Source of the DNA: Bdellovibrionales bacterium
GTDB taxonomy: Bacteria; Bdellovibrionota; UBA1018; CAIMNF01
DNA length: 64,000 nucleotides
Direction: 5' to 3'
NCBI GenBank assembly: GCA_947502835.1
Contig: CANNBJ010000001.1
Span: 1-64,000, forward strand
The translations under genes and the position numbers were made by a program. Of the stretch, positions 18,735 to 25,836 are shown one piece after another; within the stretch, counting starts at the first letter, position 1; each line of letters opens with the position of its first letter. The notes under the pieces were generated by a model. The model was not told the DNA's origin and ran no database searches. It saw only the letters and a program-made list of their open reading frames with translations.

Positions 18735-18787
18735 TTGACTCAAATGAAATGCCGCTGTTTGAAAGGCATGGATTCTGAGGGGTGTCC
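18735..18787 (+). repeat. Island-flanking direct repeat, copy A
   Basis: A 53-bp sequence starting TTGACTCAAATG and ending GAGGGGTGTCC matches 48 of 53 bases of copy B at 25784-25836, in the same orientation. An extra TTGACTCAAA unit precedes it at 18725-18734. The 156 bp between this copy and the subtilase stop hold no gene I can support. Confidence 0.85.
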
Positions 18788-18943
18788 CCACGGACTCACC
18801 AAGCCCAAAGAGGACTTTGCAGTCCCGAGTTTACCTTGCAATCTATTCTTGGACGAATTTCTTCTGAATTTTACATACGCAGCGAAGTTCATCTGCCGTG
18901 GCGAAATCACTCCATCGGTCATTGATTTGCTTCCGAGTTAAAT

Positions 18944-20461
18944 CTACTGTTCGCGGATTAGATGTTTCATAGCCTCATAGGCATCGAGAAGACCTCCCGT
19001 TGCTGAGAGACTCTCAAGGGGGACTAGCTTTGAGGAATCTGCTGCTGGCGGAACCACACCAAGTTCTGGATAGCGTCGGGCCGACTTGAGTATCGCATTG
19101 CGAATCTTCGAAGCGGGAGCATTTGGAAAACGGGACCAGAGTAAAGCCGCGACGCCTGTCACTTGGGGGGCGGCAAGCGAGGTACCCCCAACTTCCTCGA
19201 TTTGATTTCCGAGAGTTGGCGCTTGAATTTTCTCACTTGGCGCGAAGATATCAACAGATAGCTTTCCGTAATTGGAAGAGGAGGCAATCAGGTTTTCCCC
19301 GTGCATGCGGTTTGATCCGCCTACCTCTATCCAGTGGTTAGCAAGCCTCGGATCACGCTGGTTTCCGTTCAGCTTTGGGCTTGGATACGATCTGACAGCC
19401 GGCAAATCCAGATTCATTCCGCTATTTCCTGACCCGTGGACAAGAAGCACATCGTGCGCTGCTGCGTAGGAGAGAGCTTCCTGAACCAGTTCACGCTCTT
19501 CGGAGATGCGCTTTGCAAAACTCATGTTAATGATACGAGCGCCGTGATCTACGGCGTATCGGATGGCCCGAGCGATGTCGACATCCCGCTCATCGCCGAC
19601 GGGAACGGCACGGATGGGCATGATGCGGACCGCGTCTGCAAGGGTAGCAATGACACCGGCAACGCAGGTGCCGTGGGAGGCATTGGGTCCCACAATATCG
19701 TTGTTGCCCGCCTCATCAATGGCTTTCGTCTCATCAAAATCCAAATTCAAATGGTAATCAAGCTCGAGCTTCGAGAACGGCATGAGAGCCATCAGAAAAT
19801 CCGAGGTCATTCCTTGTTCGAAGAGGCTGTGAGCCTTGATCTTGGCACTCGCGACATCAGGAGAATCTACGTTTAACTCTTGGAGAGCCGAAGTCGACTC
19901 AGAAGTGAGGCCGTGGGACTTCAGGAGTGTGATCGCATCCAATCCTGATTTAAATTTCGCATACTCGTTCTCAGCCGTCGCTCGAAATGCGGTGACATCC
20001 TCAAGAGCTTCCTTCAATGCAGTTTGCTCGACCGGAGTGAGATCAAGCGGATCTTTGGACTGTAAGTTTTTTACCACGCGTACCGTTGATTTGGTTAGGT
20101 AGAGGGCGTTCTCACCTGAGCGTTTGCCAAGGAGATTCCAACCGTGAATATCGTCGACGATTCCGTTGTGATCGTCATCCACCCCGGGGGCCCCATTGGT
20201 TTCGCGAGAGTTAACCCATAGCTTACCGTTAAACGCTGGGTGATTGATGTCGACTCCAGTGTCAATCACAGCGACTGTGATCGGCGCGACGGCTTTCGGA
20301 AACTTTAGGTGCTTCCTCAGGCGCAGGGTCGAGGTGCCTTCAACCCCGTCTTTGTGGGGGTTGAGCATGAACCAAGGGACAGCAGGTTCGGGAGGTTTGG
20401 TGGAGGCTTGGCTGAGAAGAGGGAGAGTCAGGAATGCAACGATTGCTGGGGAAAAATGCAC
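18944..20461 (-). CDS. Secreted subtilisin-family (S8) serine protease
   Basis: The 505-aa protein has a signal peptide (residues 1-20) and the full S8 triad: Asp67 in AVIDTGVDINHPAF, His263 in NASHGTCVAGVIA, and Ser428 in GGTSLAAPQVTGVAALL, with oxyanion Asn346 in GSGNSG. Between Asp and His there is a long insert of about 190 residues that is mostly helical and charged; in other S8 enzymes this gap is about 40. The start is GTG at 20461, with GGATAA 9-14 nt upstream. It is the last gene of the island operon, 97 nt after the SelO-like gene, so it may mature the exported peptide outside the cytoplasm. That role is inference. Confidence 0.9.
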   Translation of the reverse strand: MHFSPAIVAFLTLPLLSQASTKPPEPAVPWFMLNPHKDGVEGTSTLRLRKHLKFPKAVAPITVAVIDTGVDINHPAFNGKLWVNSRETNGAPGVDDDHNGIVDDIHGWNLLGKRSGENALYLTKSTVRVVKNLQSKDPLDLTPVEQTALKEALEDVTAFRATAENEYAKFKSGLDAITLLKSHGLTSESTSALQELNVDSPDVASAKIKAHSLFEQGMTSDFLMALMPFSKLELDYHLNLDFDETKAIDEAGNNDIVGPNASHGTCVAGVIATLADAVRIMPIRAVPVGDERDVDIARAIRYAVDHGARIINMSFAKRISEERELVQEALSYAAAHDVLLVHGSGNSGMNLDLPAVRSYPSPKLNGNQRDPRLANHWIEVGGSNRMHGENLIASSSNYGKLSVDIFAPSEKIQAPTLGNQIEEVGGTSLAAPQVTGVAALLWSRFPNAPASKIRNAILKSARRYPELGVVPPAADSSKLVPLESLSATGGLLDAYEAMKHLIREQ

Positions 20462-20558
20462 GGCGGAATTATCCGATAAAAAAAGTCAAATATCAAGGAG
20501 AAAGTTGTGCAAGGTTCTCCAATCTGGATTGCAAAACTTCATTGGAAATTATTTTGGT

Positions 20559-22028
20559 TTACTTGTTTGCAAAGGTTGTTTCAATTTGAAGCTCAGCGTA
20601 GGAAAGGGCAGTGAGAAACCCCTCTGGTGTGGTCTCTTTTTCAACCGCTTTGATGCACTCTGCAAAAAGCCGATGCCAGCCAGAGTCGATGTCAGCAAGA
20701 AAACGCTCCCTTGGGAACCACGATGGTGCAATTAAGGAAGGTGATTTACCTAGCTCAAGCCCATACCGGGCTTGAGTGACGATATCAGATTGGTAGGGAC
20801 CCGAAAGTTTGATCGAACCTGTGAGGCGAAGGCTGCGCTGCTGGTCGATGACCTCAGCGAGCCCAGCCTGCGCGTGGTCTCCGATCCGGGAGCCGTAGTG
20901 GTTCCGAATAAGCCCGACCCAATGAGAATCATTGAAGATTCTGGACTCGCGGACAAGGCGGGTCTCGATCTCACTGGAAATAATTCTAAGGAGCTCGTGA
21001 TAGGGAGCATGGGCTGGATTTTTCAGATACCCGTAATAGAGCTCACGGGCCCTGCACCAGCCCAACAGATCCAGAATCCACTCCCTCACTTGCTTAACGG
21101 CTTGGAAGACTTCGAAGTGGGCGGGGCAGTCGAACTCCCGATCCTCCCGGTTCGAAAAATCATAGATAAGGTCTGGACCGGTCACGAGTGGGACTTCGAG
21201 GTCTAGAAACTTGATTCCGGCGGAGAAATTGTTATTCAGGCTGCACCAAAGAATTCCCGAGGTCTGGAATCGAAAGAACTCCTCGAGACCGAGAACCGTT
21301 TGGGACTCGATCTGACCAAAAATGGTACCAATCTCTTCATTTATCCCATCCTCACTCTTGGTAAAGTCCGCGTCGAGGGAGGTACCCCAATCACGGATCA
21401 CCCGGGTGAGAGCATCGAGCGATACATCTGCTCCGGACCGTAGGAGCCATGAGAAGTTGGTGAATCTAAGGAATCCAGATGGCTTCACCGAGATCGCCTG
21501 AAGGGTCCTGTCGCAAGGAGGCATAAGATTGAAATCAAAATTGCCCCCTGAAGCGTAGGTCTTTCGGGCAACCTCCGCGAGGGAAGCGTGCATTTCTGCA
21601 ACGAGAAGTCCGTCACAAGGGATTATGGACTTCCCAAGTCCGAGCTGCTTCACCCACACGCTCACGAGGTACTCACGCGCCGCCGAAGAGGCAAGCAAGT
21701 GACCGGATCCATGGTAATAGTCGCTATTCCGCACTGGAAACATTGGGGTTAATCCCACACCCTTCAGGTAATGATCGCCGAAGTGTATCGAGCGGGCCGA
21801 TCCGAGATGAAACACGGGAGCGCCAGGTTGGATCTGAAAGTCGGAATAGGCTGAGCCCTCCCAGTCAGAAAAATCGGAACTGGTCCGGAAAGAGCCGTGG
21901 CGAAGATGAGATTCCGTCACCCAAGCGAGATCATGATGAACCTCGCGCAGGGAACTGAATCCTTCAGCCCGCTTGATCCTGACAGAAGATGAGTAAGGTC
22001 TGATTCTTTGTGAGAGAGATTCCATCAT
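20559..22028 (-). CDS. Divergent SelO/YdiU-like (pseudokinase AMPylase fold) protein
   Basis: The 489-aa protein has no signal peptide. By eye it follows the order of blocks in SelO/YdiU: YLKGVGLTP at 88-95 (SelO LKGAGxTP, P-loop-side Lys89), SSAAREYLVSVWVKQLG at 114-130 (SelO SSIREFLxSEAMxxLG, Glu119), ISVKPSGFLRFTNFSW at 179-194 (SelO RVAPSxLRFGxFE), and SLNNNFSAGIKFLDLEVP at 263-280 (SelO MNTDNMSxxGxTxDYGPF, Asp276 as metal ligand). The SelO catalytic Asp of NTDN appears to be Asn here, and the Arg of MRVAPS is missing, so activity may differ or be lost. SelO transfers AMP to Ser/Thr/Tyr. The ATG overlaps the stop of the exporter gene (ATGA). The SelO assignment is tentative. Confidence 0.6.
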   Translation of the reverse strand: MMESLSQRIRPYSSSVRIKRAEGFSSLREVHHDLAWVTESHLRHGSFRTSSDFSDWEGSAYSDFQIQPGAPVFHLGSARSIHFGDHYLKGVGLTPMFPVRNSDYYHGSGHLLASSAAREYLVSVWVKQLGLGKSIIPCDGLLVAEMHASLAEVARKTYASGGNFDFNLMPPCDRTLQAISVKPSGFLRFTNFSWLLRSGADVSLDALTRVIRDWGTSLDADFTKSEDGINEEIGTIFGQIESQTVLGLEEFFRFQTSGILWCSLNNNFSAGIKFLDLEVPLVTGPDLIYDFSNREDREFDCPAHFEVFQAVKQVREWILDLLGWCRARELYYGYLKNPAHAPYHELLRIISSEIETRLVRESRIFNDSHWVGLIRNHYGSRIGDHAQAGLAEVIDQQRSLRLTGSIKLSGPYQSDIVTQARYGLELGKSPSLIAPSWFPRERFLADIDSGWHRLFAECIKAVEKETTPEGFLTALSYAELQIETTFANK

Positions 22029-24160
22029 AATAGGCGCCCATCCTTCATGGTATGAATCTTATCGGCAATCGCCGGCATTGCATCGCTGTGGGAGGCGATC
22101 AGGAAGATCCGGTTAGTCTTGTTCTTTTCGATCAAGCTCATGATGCGCTTTTCGGACTCTTCATCGAGCGATGAGGTGGGCTCATCCATGATGATGAACG
22201 GTTGCCCGCTGAGGAGCGCGCGGATTGTTGCAAGCCGTTGAATCTGGCCGCCCGAAAATCCTTTGGCAACATCAGAAACTTGAGATCGGATTCTGAGCGG
22301 GAATTCCTTTAAGGTGTCGAGCAACCCGGCATCCTCAATCAGCGCATACACACGGGCTTCGTCAACTGAGCGCCCCAGGGTAAGGTTTTCGAGAATGGTT
22401 CCATCAAAGAGGCGGGATTCCTGATCCAGATATGCACAGTGTTTCAGTCTGCGGTACTCCTCCCAGGTGACTCCCTTGATGCCGTTAATGAGGATTTCGC
22501 CGTTCGAAGGGGCGAAGATACCCGAGCACACGCCAAGGAGACTGCTTTTTCCGATACCGCTCGGCCCCCGGATGAGGGTGACGGTCCCTGCTTTCAGCGT
22601 GAGGTCGAGGTCTCTGATAACGTATCTGCCTAGATCGCCGCGATATCCGAACGACAAATCTCTGAATTCGAGCTGCTCGATGGGTTTTCCGATGATCTCC
22701 AAAAAACTAGGCGTCGAAGTGCGCTTGATCGAAGGGTCATGAGTGTCTGAGAAGAGATCAAGGAGACGTTGATATGCGAGTATTGCACTTTGAATCGAGA
22801 CCTGATACGACTCGAATGAACCGAGAATCGAAATCACTGTTAACTGAAGAGAGAGCACCGTGACAAGATTCCCTGCGGTGATAAGCCCCTTCTCATAAAT
22901 TCCCGCAAGAAGCAGAGTACCTACAAACTGAAGGAGGGCGCTTCCCGTGATCCGAACCCAGCTCCAATTTCTTGATAGAGTCTGGAGCTGTAAGTTCATC
23001 TTTCCGATACTTTTTGTCGTTCGGGCCCAGCGTCGGAAAAAAAAACCAGTCGAGCCGTTCATTGACAGCCACTTTTTTAGAGTGAGAAGCTCATAGAGAC
23101 TACTCCCAGACTGCGCGACTTTGAGTGACACTCGATAAGAGCTCCTGGATCTGTTTTGGGCCGAGAACATGTTGAGCACGAAGGAGAAGGTACCAAGGGC
23201 CAAGGCCGAGATGGCTGCCGTTGATGATATGCGCCAAATAAGCGCCAGCGCGAAGAGAAGCGAGAAGAGACGCGAAACCGTACCCGTGAGCACATTACCT
23301 GCCAGTAATTGGAATTCAGAGATAGCAGCGGAGCGGGTCGCGTAATCCCCCAAGCGTCTTGAAGAAAACTGGATCCAGTCGAGGTTGAGGATGCGACGGA
23401 TTAGTGCGCCGTTCATCGAGAGTTCGAGCATCTTTTCCAACCGCGAGCTCAACCAGTTCTGGAAAGTTCCTATGAATGAACCAATTGAGCCTGCCAAGAC
23501 GAATCCTGCAATCATTAGGGTCGAGTTGCTCTTCGAGATCAGGCGATCGATCATCTTCCCGAAAAATACCGAGGGTAGGGTTTCAAGGGCGGCGACCGAA
23601 ATGGAGAGTGCTATGAGCCAAAGGAGAAGGGGCCGATAGCGGATGAAAATTTCCCGGAGCTCCTTTGACTGGCCGTAGCGGAGCTGTCGGGGCGCGGTGT
23701 TCGCGACATCACGGTTTAGGTGCGCATCAAAATAGAGCCCCTGCCGGTGGTAACGACCGGCGATCTCGGAAGGCTTGAAACGCAGGCGGCCGTAGGCGGG
23801 ATCCATGATCTCGCATTTGACTTTCTTTCCCCGACGTATAGGACGCATAAGTACGAAGTGACCCGCACCGCTTTGAATTGCCTCGGGCCTTGTGCACAAA
23901 ACAAATATCCCGTTCTCGGTTAGAAGCGATTCCAGTTCATCAAACTCGATCGGATCGCAATGAAGACCGATCTTCGCGGAAGCGGTTCCGATTTCCGCTA
24001 GGGTTGCGCCGTCAGAATCGAGATGGACCTGCGCACGGACCCCTTGGTAATCGGCATTGATATTGAAATATTTCGCCGCTGACAGGAGCACCGCAACCCC
24101 GCAATCCATCAAGTCATGCTGGGAAACTACCGGAAGTTCCGTTGAAGAGTCTTTTGCCAT
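22025..24160 (-). CDS. Peptidase-containing ABC exporter (PCAT) for double-glycine leader peptides
   Basis: The 711-aa protein has three parts. Residues 10-140 are a C39 peptidase: Gln14 and Cys20 in SQHDLMDCGVAVLLSAAKY, His101 in GAGHFVLMRP and Asp120 in EIMDPAYGR, so the triad is intact. Six membrane helices follow at about 170-450. The C-terminal ATPase has Walker A GPSGIGKSS, signature FSGGQIQRLATIRALL and Walker B FIIMDEPTSSLDEES. It should cut the leader after Gly-Gly and export the core peptide. It starts 52 nt after the 392-aa gene and overlaps the SelO-like gene by 4 nt. The small gene at 25483 encodes a fitting substrate. Confidence 0.93.
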   Translation of the reverse strand: MAKDSSTELPVVSQHDLMDCGVAVLLSAAKYFNINADYQGVRAQVHLDSDGATLAEIGTASAKIGLHCDPIEFDELESLLTENGIFVLCTRPEAIQSGAGHFVLMRPIRRGKKVKCEIMDPAYGRLRFKPSEIAGRYHRQGLYFDAHLNRDVANTAPRQLRYGQSKELREIFIRYRPLLLWLIALSISVAALETLPSVFFGKMIDRLISKSNSTLMIAGFVLAGSIGSFIGTFQNWLSSRLEKMLELSMNGALIRRILNLDWIQFSSRRLGDYATRSAAISEFQLLAGNVLTGTVSRLFSLLFALALIWRISSTAAISALALGTFSFVLNMFSAQNRSRSSYRVSLKVAQSGSSLYELLTLKKWLSMNGSTGFFFRRWARTTKSIGKMNLQLQTLSRNWSWVRITGSALLQFVGTLLLAGIYEKGLITAGNLVTVLSLQLTVISILGSFESYQVSIQSAILAYQRLLDLFSDTHDPSIKRTSTPSFLEIIGKPIEQLEFRDLSFGYRGDLGRYVIRDLDLTLKAGTVTLIRGPSGIGKSSLLGVCSGIFAPSNGEILINGIKGVTWEEYRRLKHCAYLDQESRLFDGTILENLTLGRSVDEARVYALIEDAGLLDTLKEFPLRIRSQVSDVAKGFSGGQIQRLATIRALLSGQPFIIMDEPTSSLDEESEKRIMSLIEKNKTNRIFLIASHSDAMPAIADKIHTMKDGRLL

Positions 24161-24212
24161 CTTCTCGATTCTAAGCCAGCTCTAAGTTGAGAGAAAGAGA
24201 TTTGTCCCCCTT

Positions 24213-25391
24213 TCAAGGAAGGCAAAAAACATGGTCGTCAAAACTCGCGACAAGGTCGTCACTCTTGACCCGAGCAAACGATTCCAAGGGGCGCTTCAGA
24301 TGAGTGGCGATCCAGTCCATACTGAGAGGGTGGGTTTCGGTAATAAACCGGAAGATCAACTGCTGCCGCTCCGAATCGGAGATATCATTGTAGTCGATCA
24401 TTGAAAGAACAAGCTCGTCGGCTCCAGGATAGTGCTTTAGGAATGCGCTTGAGTCAGGTGCCACAAACTTTTCGATGCAGACGAGTCTGGGATCGGAAGG
24501 GAATCCCGGAAGCTTTGAGATTCGGTCTACCTGCAAGCTTGCATTTGAATCATCGAGCTCGCCCCGCGTTGTCAGGGACCACACGCGTTTTCCAATATGG
24601 CCAATGAGGTCGTTTTGCCATGGTTCCTGCGCTAGAACAGGGGAATCGTCGAAAGGGGAAGCTAAGGTGCCAGTAAGAGAGGCCGCCCAACGCCGGGCGT
24701 ATCTGCGTTGCTTTGCCCCGTAACGGAGCTCATGAACGAGATATTCTTGAAGGGCAGGGCAGTTTTCGAGATCTTGAATGTCGAAACCTTGCATTTCTCC
24801 CTCCAGATAGAAACGGCAGATTTCACTGAAGAGGGATTCCCGATCAATTGAAAAATCCGGTGCGATGCTTTTGATTTCGCGAACCTGCGATTCGTTCAAT
24901 TGAATGGTGAGCTGAAAATACGGATCACTCAGTCCATAAAGAGGGCTTAAATTGAGTTTCGAGAGAATCCAGTAATCCAAGACCACGGTGGCCACTGCCT
25001 CAGAGATCAGCAAAAAAAATACGAGATTTCTCTCGCGGGTATAGTTGGGAATCGTGGCAGCGCCCGGGAATGCTGCAATTTCACGGAACGCCAATTGATG
25101 TAGATAGTCGTGAACGAGAAATAATGTTTCTTTCAGCAGAATCTTTCGGGCGATCTCCATCTCCGGAACCGCCCCTTTTCGGATCCACCTTGCGAGAAGC
25201 GAGTTCTGGTGAGTATATATCTTGCCGTTTAACGGGTTGAATCCGGCTTGGAACTCATTAACCAAGCCAGAATAAGCCCAACGAGCGTCATAGGGCCGGA
25301 AAAAGATATGTGTTCTGGAGTCAGTAGTCACTCTGTGAAACAAGGGATGCTCCATCTCGATTCGACTCAATGCCGTCTTCATCCTGTCCAT
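24213..25391 (-). CDS. Unknown protein with an HDxxH motif in the peptide-export operon
   Basis: The 392-aa protein has no signal or clear membrane segments and matches no family I recognise. A helical region holds KETLFLVHDYLHQLAFREIA, giving His94-Asp95-x-x-His98, and a second helix has SEAVATVVLDYW with Glu131 and Asp139. This spacing would suit a metal site (a degenerate zincin or a helical metalloenzyme), but that is speculation. The rest is charged and helical, with several Trp/Tyr. The ATG has AGGGAGA about 7 nt upstream. Its place right after the precursor gene argues for a tailoring enzyme, immunity protein or carrier. Confidence 0.75.
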   Translation of the reverse strand: MDRMKTALSRIEMEHPLFHRVTTDSRTHIFFRPYDARWAYSGLVNEFQAGFNPLNGKIYTHQNSLLARWIRKGAVPEMEIARKILLKETLFLVHDYLHQLAFREIAAFPGAATIPNYTRERNLVFFLLISEAVATVVLDYWILSKLNLSPLYGLSDPYFQLTIQLNESQVREIKSIAPDFSIDRESLFSEICRFYLEGEMQGFDIQDLENCPALQEYLVHELRYGAKQRRYARRWAASLTGTLASPFDDSPVLAQEPWQNDLIGHIGKRVWSLTTRGELDDSNASLQVDRISKLPGFPSDPRLVCIEKFVAPDSSAFLKHYPGADELVLSMIDYNDISDSERQQLIFRFITETHPLSMDWIATHLKRPLESFARVKSDDLVASFDDHVFCLP

Positions 25392-25423
25392 ACAGAATCT
25401 CCCTGCGACCTTTATAAATTCGA

Positions 25424-25453
25424 AGGCTCCTCCCGCAGAAGCGAAAGGAGCCT
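25424..25453 (-). promoter_or_regulatory. Hairpin between precursor and downstream genes, possible attenuator
   Basis: AGGCTCCT (25424-25431) and AGGAGCCT (25446-25453) form a perfect 8-bp stem with a 14-nt loop in the 91-bp gap after the precursor gene. No long T tract follows on the minus strand, so it is more likely a partial terminator or mRNA-end stabiliser that favours precursor expression. Confidence 0.55.
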
Positions 25454-25482
25454 AACTGAATTTGAAATCGGACCCGATTCAA

Positions 25483-25668
25483 TCAAGAACTAGCTTTCAA
25501 TGCTGGTACAGCTACGGTTTCCTTCTCCCCAGTGAATTCGTCATAAACTTCAACGCCATTGGCCCTTGTTTCGGTGCCTTTACTATTTACTGGAGACCTC
25601 TTAATCGGTTCGGCTCCACCCACAATCTTTTTGCTGTTTTCAAGGTCCTTTAGAGTTACTTTTTTCAT
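25483..25668 (-). CDS. Putative exported peptide precursor with double-glycine leader
   Basis: A 61-aa peptide. Residues 1-18, MKKVTLKDLENSKKIVGG, form a leader with the Gly-Gly cleavage site and a hydrophobic residue at -4 (Ile15), as used by C39 exporters. Cleavage would release a 43-aa core starting AEPIKRSPVNSK and ending VPALKASS. The core has no Cys, so it cannot form lanthionines or disulfides. It has nine Ser/Thr/Tyr, several Glu/Lys and a central YDEFTGEKET. GGA lies 8-10 nt before the ATG, and a strong promoter is upstream. Encoded with the PCAT exporter, it is the likely substrate. Its biological activity is unknown. Confidence 0.8.
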   Translation of the reverse strand: MKKVTLKDLENSKKIVGGAEPIKRSPVNSKGTETRANGVEVYDEFTGEKETVAVPALKASS

Positions 25669-25694
25669 TGATCATTTCCTTTCATCGAGTCCTG

Positions 25695-25713
25695 AGTCGA
25701 GGTTATCTCGACT
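25695..25713 (-). promoter_or_regulatory. Inverted repeat in the precursor 5' leader
   Basis: AGTCGAG (25695-25701) and CTCGACT (25707-25713) are perfect arms with a 5-nt spacer, 27 nt upstream of the precursor ATG and just after the predicted transcription start. It may be an operator or a leader hairpin. Confidence 0.5.
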
Positions 25714-25730
25714 ATTCTTTTGAAGTTTAA

Positions 25731-25760
25731 ATTAGAATCGAATCACGAGCAATCTGTCAA
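25731..25760 (-). promoter_or_regulatory. Sigma70-type promoter of the island operon
   Basis: On the minus strand TTGACA (complement at 25755-25760) is followed after 18 bp by TCTAAT (25731-25736), five of six matches to the -10 consensus. Transcription should start near 25724, giving a leader of about 56 nt. The -35 box forms half of the palindrome TGTCAA-AA-TTGACA at 25755-25768, so a repressor could cover it. Confidence 0.7.
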
Positions 25761-25783
25761 AATTGACACATCGCCACAAAGAT

Positions 25784-25836
25784 TTGACTCAAACGAAGTC
25801 CCGCTCTTTGAAAGGCATGGATTGTGAGGGGTGTCC
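25784..25836 (+). repeat. Island-flanking direct repeat, copy B
   Basis: This is the second copy of the 53-bp repeat (48/53 identical to 18735-18787). It lies one base beyond the ctaB stop codon, so it may be the original 3' flank of ctaB and copy A the duplicate made when the island arrived. Confidence 0.85.

What the first reader, a model, noticed from the sequence alone, without database searches (positions are those of the whole stretch)
18735..25836. Candidate new peptide system: Cys-free double-glycine peptide, PCAT exporter and SelO-like protein in one operon
Seen: a leftward run of five genes (61-aa peptide with VGG leader, unknown 392-aa protein, C39-peptidase ABC exporter, SelO-like protein, secreted subtilase) behind one consensus promoter, with a 4-nt overlap between exporter and SelO-like genes. 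Known: C39 exporters cut Gly-Gly leaders; SelO proteins transfer AMP to Ser/Thr/Tyr. Inference: the core peptide (no Cys, nine Ser/Thr/Tyr) could be nucleotidylated or otherwise modified by the SelO-fold enzyme, exported, then trimmed by the subtilase. There is no LanM, LanB, YcaO or radical SAM, so this fits no RiPP class I know.
Basis: partly seen in the sequence, partly recalled or inferred. Interest (0 to 1): 0.88.

Follow-up and report, generated by a model that had tools for sequence, protein, structure and literature searches.

The report
Microcin-like peptide maturation and export operon
A Bdellovibrio-type bacterium carries an operon that makes a small peptide, very probably modifies it with two enzymes (a distant SelO/MchC relative and a member of an unnamed family) and exports it; the same gene set recurs in unrelated bacteria and resembles, with one partner enzyme swapped, the machinery that finishes siderophore microcins in E. 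coli.

Summary
In detail: five leftward genes encode a 61-aa VGG-leader peptide, an unnamed 392-aa protein, a C39 peptidase-ABC exporter, a SelO-fold protein and a subtilase. The system is real beyond this window. Relatives of the 392-aa protein (invariant HDxxH…E…D…HE) were found in 14 further loci of Bdellovibrionota, Myxococcota and others; in nine a SelO-fold gene accompanies it, and 9 of 13 upstream regions examined hold a double-glycine-type peptide gene (4.4% of random segments do).

The interpretation needs correcting. The enzyme has the SelO fold (best match SelO, Z 18) but is neither a Pfam SelO nor without precedent: by sequence it lies nearer MchC, the SelO-like enzyme of class IIb siderophore microcins, which also use a GG-leader peptide and a C39 exporter. 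Like MchC, it lacks the SelO catalytic Asp, which points to activation of a carboxylate rather than AMP on Ser/Thr/Tyr. The microcin partner MchD is absent; the 392-aa protein, often with a 2OG-Fe(II) oxygenase, takes its place. So: a new variant of siderophore-microcin-type peptide maturation, with one enzyme of unknown chemistry. Product and role are unknown.

The parts
25483..25668 (-). Precursor peptide, 61 aa, double-glycine (VGG) leader of 18 aa and 43-aa core
   Evidence: homologue in same-genus genome G008 at the same place relative to the 392-aa gene; ribosome-binding site gaaaggaaatg
24213..25391 (-). 392-aa protein of an unnamed family; invariant E88, H94-D95-x-x-H98, E131, D139, H220-E221, R229; hallmark gene of the cluster
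   Evidence: no Pfam/NCBIfam family; relatives; model; no clear fold match
22025..24160 (-). Peptidase-C39-containing ABC exporter (PCAT), 711 aa
   Evidence: PF03412, PF00664, PF00005
20559..22028 (-). SelO-fold enzyme of a third branch beside SelO and MchC, 489 aa; 4-nt overlap with exporter gene
   Evidence: fold; relation to MchC and SelO
18944..20461 (-). Subtilase (Peptidase_S8), 505 aa, N-terminus like a signal peptide; role in the system uncertain
   Evidence: 97-nt gap and own promoter-like site
25731..25760 (-). Promoter-like site TTGACA-18-TCTAAT upstream of the peptide gene
   Evidence: Read directly from the sequence; not listed by the scan; no evidence of function
25784..25836 (.). 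53-nt direct repeat, copy beside ctaB
18735..18787 (.). 53-nt direct repeat, copy beyond the subtilase (91% identical to the other)

Best explanation
A dedicated maturation and export system for a small double-glycine peptide, built like that of class IIb siderophore microcins. Proposed working: (1) the ribosome makes the 61-aa precursor (the sequence shows it); (2) the SelO-fold enzyme binds ATP and metal with conserved Lys89, Glu119, Asn267 and Asp276 and activates a carboxylate of the peptide, its C-terminus or a Glu/Asp side chain, as an adenylate or phosphate (inferred from MchC/MceJ kinship and the missing catalytic Asp); (3) the 392-aa protein, a probable metal enzyme with an HDxxH...E...HE site, carries out or assists the joining or another modification of the core, in many relatives with a 2OG-Fe(II) oxygenase (inferred from co-occurrence and invariant residues; chemistry unknown); (4) the C39 domain of the ABC exporter cuts after Gly-Gly and exports the product (established behaviour of this family); (5) the subtilase may trim the peptide outside (weak).
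For: Gene set conserved: the 392-aa family plus SelO-fold gene in the window and nine further loci, six of them with a C39-type exporter; eight loci have a 2OG-Fe(II) oxygenase gene. Double-glycine-type precursor in 9 of 13 upstream regions against 4.4% of random segments, P about 4e-10 uncorrected for kinship; precursor pair L030/L036 under purifying selection, dN 0.18, dS 0.64. SelO fold: Z 15-18 to all listed SelO/YdiU structures, next the carboxylate-activating NIS synthetases AcsD/SbnC at 9-10. Nearer MchC than SelO: the family profile scores MchC up to 31.0 bits and SelO at most 9.0; the MchC profile scores the family up to 15.7, the SelO profile at most 7.8; shared N-x3-DGR-x2-D motif in most members, SelO's catalytic Asp absent in both. 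MceIJ/MchCD join a siderophore to the C-terminus of the microcin precursor (PMC6071977, PMC7472721).
Against: No MchD/HlyC acyltransferase gene in any of these loci and no siderophore or glycosyltransferase gene in the window operon, so the conjugated group, if any, is unknown. The family is a clade of its own (99/99), and the unrooted tree cannot say whether MchC is its sister. Precursor C-termini are not conserved across loci. Two loci have the 392-aa family and the oxygenase without a SelO-fold gene (L029, L039), so the two enzymes are not obligate partners. No immunity gene was recognised. The function of MchC itself is biochemically unresolved (PMC7472721).
Confidence: 0.5

Rival explanations
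1. The SelO-fold enzyme AMPylates (or UMPylates) a Ser/Thr/Tyr hydroxyl of the core, for example at the recurrent motif (E/K)-x-(Y/W), and the nucleotidylated peptide is exported.
For: SelO fold and known AMPylation of Ser/Thr/Tyr by SelO (PMC12409994); an aromatic residue after E/K-x recurs in the cores of the window, L028, L030, L036, L032, L034 and L037.
Against: The residue equivalent to SelO's Asp next to the metal-binding Asn is Asn in all nine family members, as it is Ser in MchC; sequence affinity is to MchC; the L040 repeat core lacks the aromatic motif.
Confidence: 0.15
2. Kinase-plus-lyase chemistry as in class III-V lanthipeptides: the SelO-fold enzyme phosphorylates or adenylates Ser/Thr and the 392-aa protein eliminates it to dehydroamino acids.
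For: A kinase-like enzyme with a neighbour of unknown function acting on Ser/Thr-bearing cores; some relatives have Cys spaced to Ser/Thr (L040 repeat MPPCPNVS).
Against: The cores of the window and L028 have no Cys, no LanC-type or known lyase family was matched, and the 392-aa family also occurs without the SelO-fold gene.
Confidence: 0.1
3. The SelO-fold and 392-aa proteins do not modify the peptide but act as regulators, immunity or transport factors; the peptide is exported unmodified as a signal or bacteriocin.
For: C39 exporters alone suffice for many double-glycine peptides (established knowledge); the family lacks one SelO catalytic residue.
Against: The ATP- and metal-binding positions are invariant and the best-studied relative, MchC/MceJ, is required for precursor modification (PMC6071977, PMC7472721).
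Confidence: 0.15
4. The 392-aa family is an oxygenase or hydrolase of zincin-like architecture (like the alpha-ketoglutarate HEXXH enzymes of other RiPPs) that oxidises the core, and the SelO-fold enzyme performs a separate, optional step.
For: HDxxH with an invariant Glu 33 residues on, embedded in TEAVATVGLDYW, on successive helices; weak zincin rows (selecase, PprI, M32) in the structure list at Z about 3; 392-aa family plus 2OG-Fe(II) gene without SelO-fold gene in L029 and L039.
Against: No useful match to the NCBIfam library even at E 10; Z about 3 is not significant; the middle residue is Asp, not Glu.
Confidence: 0.1

Closest known systems
Class IIb siderophore microcin maturation (MchC/MchD with MchE/MchF in microcin H47; MceJ/MceI with MceH/MceG in microcin E492)
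   Same: Double-glycine-type precursor, SelO-superfamily enzyme without the SelO catalytic Asp, C39 ABC exporter
   Different: No MchD (HlyC-like) acyltransferase; instead an unrelated 392-aa family and often a 2OG-Fe(II) oxygenase; no siderophore glycosyltransferase in the window operon; separate clade from MchC; other phyla; peptide not Ser/Gly-rich at the C-terminus
SelO / YdiU protein adenylyltransferase (PF02696)
   Same: Fold over about 310-340 residues (Z 15-18); Lys, Glu, metal Asn and Asp kept
   Different: No Pfam match; catalytic Asp and HGVMNTDN/DYG motifs replaced by NN-x-T-x-DGR-FLDLE; clustered with peptide and exporter; a normal SelO gene lies elsewhere in the same genome
IucA/IucC-type NIS synthetases (AcsD, SbnC)
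   Same: Next-best fold (Z 9-10); activate carboxylates with ATP; in G228 a FhuF/IucA-IucC-type gene stands beside the 392-aa family gene in place of the SelO-fold gene
   Different: Other sequence family; siderophore substrates
Alpha-ketoglutarate HEXXH RiPP enzymes (PflC, PosC, BpmH, ChlH)
   Same: His-x3-His plus downstream Glu in a RiPP-type cluster
   Different: The 392-aa family has HDxxH and no match to the family library; similarity is of motif type only

Membership tests
SelO protein adenylyltransferase (PF02696) | Sequence match to PF02696 | tested here: not met
   no Pfam family at E up to 1 for P0004; a true SelO lies at C3:139618-140952 of the same genome
SelO protein adenylyltransferase (PF02696) | SelO fold | tested here: met
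   seven SelO/YdiU entries at Z 15.1-18.1, 312-338 residues aligned; next family Z 10.1
SelO protein adenylyltransferase (PF02696) | Catalytic Asp beside the metal-binding Asn (NTDN) and D(Y/F)G | tested here: not met
   Asp in 16/16 SelO, Asn in 9/9 of this family; DLE in place of DYG, metal Asp kept
MchC/MceJ family of class IIb microcins | SelO-like sequence with S-N-x3-DGR-x2-D motif | tested here: inconclusive
   N-x3-DGR-x2-D shared by 7 of 9 (window and L028 deviate at DGR), preceding residue Asn not Ser; MchC profile scores 5-16 bits; separate clade
MchC/MceJ family of class IIb microcins | Neighbouring MchD/MceI (HlyC-like) acyltransferase | tested here: not met
   the MchD profile finds nothing in the window or its relatives, and finds it in all seven MchC loci searched
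Class IIb siderophore microcin | Double-glycine leader and C39 ABC exporter | tested here: met
Class IIb siderophore microcin | Ser/Gly-rich C-terminus of the precursor carrying the siderophore | tested here: not met
   Window core ends VAVPALKASS; relatives end GILPTFP, ATPALGAL, TYTETKN and others
Class IIb siderophore microcin | Siderophore attached to the exported peptide | not testable with these tools
   Needs mass spectrometry
Peptidase-C39-containing ABC exporters (PCAT) | C39 peptidase, ABC membrane and ABC ATPase domains with intact motifs | tested here: met
   (PF03412, PF00664, PF00005 all above cut-off); motifs read
Alpha-ketoglutarate HEXXH enzymes | Match to the known family and HExxH | tested here: not met
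   no such NCBIfam match at E up to 10; motif is HDxxH in all 14 members
RiPP (any class) | Post-translational modification of the core | not testable with these tools
   No product data

The most novel reading that the evidence does not exclude
A new class of ribosomal peptide natural product, spread over Bdellovibrionota, Myxococcota and other bacteria, defined by a metal enzyme family of new fold or chemistry (HDxxH...E...D...HE) paired with a third branch of the SelO superfamily that activates peptide carboxylates to form crosslinks or conjugates.
Probability: 0.4. Interest if true: 0.82.

Novelty: new variant of a known kind. Interest (0 to 1): 0.64.

Why it matters
It shows that SelO-fold enzymes in peptide maturation are not confined to enterobacterial and vibrio microcins: a third branch serves peptide clusters in predatory and social bacteria, with a different partner enzyme. 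That gives an independent handle on the unresolved question of how MchC/MceJ works (which group of a peptide a SelO-fold enzyme activates), and it flags an unnamed enzyme family (no Pfam or NCBIfam model) as a hallmark by which such clusters can be mined. The product of a Bdellovibrio-type bacterium could be an antibacterial or a signal.

Tried and rejected
Pfam, NCBIfam and PDB sequence searches for the SelO-like and 392-aa proteins gave nothing. A single-sequence scan of genome contigs with P0004 found no relative; the profile of the 392-aa family did. Plain MAFFT alignment of P0004 with SelO misplaced the catalytic loop and was replaced by profile alignment. Myxococcota and alphaproteobacterial samples (331 and 385 genomes) gave no new members, so the family is rare. 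Plasmids: no hit for the 392-aa family, no useful hit for P0004. Foldseek against PDB ranked the NiRAN domain of coronavirus polymerases first for P0004 (E 0.08), a known SelO relative; VIA-align put SelO first. For the 392-aa model the best structural rows (HCN channels, Z 5.6) are only helix packing; gluzincin-type peptidases recur at Z about 3, which is not significant. HD-domain dNTPase rows in Foldseek were considered and dropped for lack of the HD-domain ligand pattern. A first, too strict leader pattern matched none of the precursors and was replaced by a generic C39-leader pattern with a random-segment control; that pattern was written after the peptides were seen. No precursor was recognised in L033, L035, L039 or L024. 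G154 (L012) holds a remote SelO/MchC-like gene near a PqqD-like gene and glycosyltransferases, but its place is uncertain (long branch). The first literature search for SelO with RiPP found nothing; the mchC link came from a 2012 SelO paper.
Full report
What is there. The five leftward genes exist as described. The peptide gene has a good ribosome-binding site and a classic double-glycine leader (MKKVTLKDLENSKKIVGG). The exporter has C39 peptidase, membrane and ATPase domains with readable catalytic and Walker motifs. The exporter and SelO-like genes overlap by 4 nt. The subtilase is a Peptidase_S8 protein with a signal-like N-terminus, 97 nt downstream. Pfam and NCBIfam recognise neither the 392-aa protein nor the SelO-like protein. 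The genome has a separate, ordinary SelO gene.

Is it a system. A search of 369 genomes of the phylum with the SelO-like protein found two clear relatives, G008 (same genus, 39% identity) and G329; a profile search added only weak hits. In both, a relative of the 392-aa protein and a C39 exporter lie beside it. Each also has a small ORF in front of the 392-aa gene: in G008 a 74-aa VGG peptide whose core aligns with that of the window (VNAKG...AAGIEAYRETTGENE against VNSKG...ANGVEVYDEFTGEKE), and in G329 a 111-aa LKGG peptide with repeats of MPPCPNVS. The 392-aa protein is the best hallmark. Its profile found 13 loci in a collection of 84,980 species, three of them (L028, L039, L040) being genomes already seen: Enhygromyxa salina (three loci), unnamed Deltaproteobacteria, a Kofleriaceae bacterium, a Rhodospirillales bacterium, a Rhizobium-labelled MAG, an unnamed bacterium and Bdellovibrionota. 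A further relative, in G228, came from the phylum search. A SelO-fold gene adjoins or accompanies it in L028, L030, L032, L033, L034, L035, L036, L037 and L040, besides the window; an exporter in L028, L030, L032, L033, L034 and L040; a 2OG-Fe(II) oxygenase in L029, L030, L032, L034, L036, L039 and L040, and more loosely in L028. In G228 a FhuF/IucA-IucC-type gene stands in the place of the SelO-fold gene.

Precursors. Small ORFs with a ribosome-binding site and a C39-type leader lie directly upstream of the 392-aa gene in 9 of 13 loci, against 4.4% of random segments of the same loci (P about 4e-10; the loci are partly related, and the pattern was written after the peptides were seen). The L030 and L036 peptides differ mostly at third codon positions (27 against 11 and 9; dN 0.18, dS 0.64). 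Cores differ widely: Cys-free in the window and L028, Cys-bearing in L032, L034, L037 and L040. A loose motif (E/K)-x-(Y/W) recurs in the cores of seven loci. Most cores are rich in Lys and Glu/Asp.

The SelO-like protein. Profile comparison with 16 true SelO proteins aligns the whole length (probability 95%). The AlphaFold model (pLDDT 72, pTM 0.80) matches all listed SelO/YdiU structures at Z 15.1-18.1 over 312-338 residues; the next families are the siderophore synthetases AcsD and SbnC (Z 9-10) and then protein kinases. Foldseek's top rows are coronavirus NiRAN domains, known SelO relatives. So the fold is settled. Dudkiewicz et al. 2012 (PMC3281104) reported that MchC, needed to attach the siderophore in microcin H47, is a remote SelO. 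I read MchC from E. coli Nissle 1917 and seven relatives from plasmids; every MchC gene stands beside an MchD-type acyltransferase, and HlyD and C39-exporter genes follow in every stretch read far enough. The window family's profile scores MchC sequences up to 31.0 bits and SelO at most 9.0; the MchC profile scores the family up to 15.7, the SelO profile at most 7.8. A tree gives three clades: this family 99/99, SelO 99/97, MchC 93/88, unrooted. SelO has Asp before the metal-binding Asn in 16 of 16; this family has Asn in 9 of 9, MchC Ser in 8 of 8, and most members of both carry DGR where SelO does not. In SelO the catalytic Asp has moved next to the alpha-phosphate (PMC12409994); I take it to be this one. 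Its loss in both peptide-associated branches suggests a substrate that needs no deprotonation, such as a carboxylate; NIS synthetases and, from general knowledge, the pseudokinase SidJ are kinase-fold precedents. That inference is not shown here.

The 392-aa protein. No named family, 14 diverse members, invariant D35, W38, E88, H94, D95, H98, E131, D139, H220, E221, R229. The model (pLDDT 71.5, pTM 0.74) is helical, with H94/H98, E131 and H220/E221 on three long helices, as for a metal site. No fold match is significant. It is not related to MchD, MchC or SelO. It occurs without the SelO-fold gene but with the oxygenase in L029 and L039, so it is likely to be the more general modifying enzyme.

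How it most likely works. Precursor made; SelO-fold enzyme activates a peptide carboxylate with ATP (inferred); 392-aa enzyme, in many relatives with a 2OG-Fe(II) oxygenase, completes the modification (inferred, chemistry unknown); C39 exporter cuts at VGG and exports (established for the family); subtilase possibly trims (weak, found beside only one other locus). This works like class IIb microcin maturation. It is not a member of that family as defined, because the MchD partner is absent, the Ser/Gly-rich C-terminus is absent, and the enzyme is a separate clade.

Mobility. The operon lies between ctaB and a small gene that are 98-103 nt apart in two close relatives, G010 and G002, so it is an insertion here or has been lost there. 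It is framed by 53-nt direct repeats; further copies occur in this genome and in G002, one beside a transposase-like gene, so they look like insertion-sequence ends.

Limits. No product, no expression data, few and partly related loci, uncalibrated pairwise E-values, and literature limited to an open-licence library, in which no paper on SelO-type enzymes in peptide clusters other than the microcin ones was found.

Noticed in passing
18735-18787 and 25784-25836: 53-nt direct repeats (91% identical) frame the operon; further copies at C4:137092-137155 of the same genome and several in G002, one next to a transposase-like gene (L078), so probably insertion-sequence ends; the operon is absent from the same site in G010 and G002.
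   Followed up: partly
L012:4872-7873 (G154): A remote SelO/MchC-like gene with an SPNKENLLIDGRWID motif beside a glycosyltransferase, a PqqD-like 88-aa gene and a 59-aa peptide: possibly another peptide cluster using a SelO-fold enzyme.
   Followed up: partly
L024:8904-11846 (G228): In a complete Bdellovibrionota genome the 392-aa family gene is followed by a FhuF/IucA-IucC-type gene instead of the SelO-fold gene, with a subtilase gene divergent to it.
   Followed up: partly
L011:9938-10309 (G329), also L040: Repeat precursor: LKGG leader followed by several CPNVSMPP-type repeats, next to a prolyl-hydroxylase-like 2OG-Fe(II) oxygenase gene; candidate for a hydroxyproline-bearing repeat peptide.
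   Followed up: no
L094, L096, L097 (Klebsiella, Photobacterium and Vibrio plasmids): MchC/MchD-type clusters that also carry a radical SAM gene, and in L096 and L097 a family 2 glycosyltransferase; gene sets unlike classical class IIb microcins.
   Followed up: no
L025:7340-8479, L026:521-1660, L027:7516-8655: A 379-aa family in three related genomes, remotely similar to the 392-aa protein (same HDxxH, E, D, HE pattern) but with no peptide, exporter or SelO-fold gene recognised nearby.
   Followed up: partly
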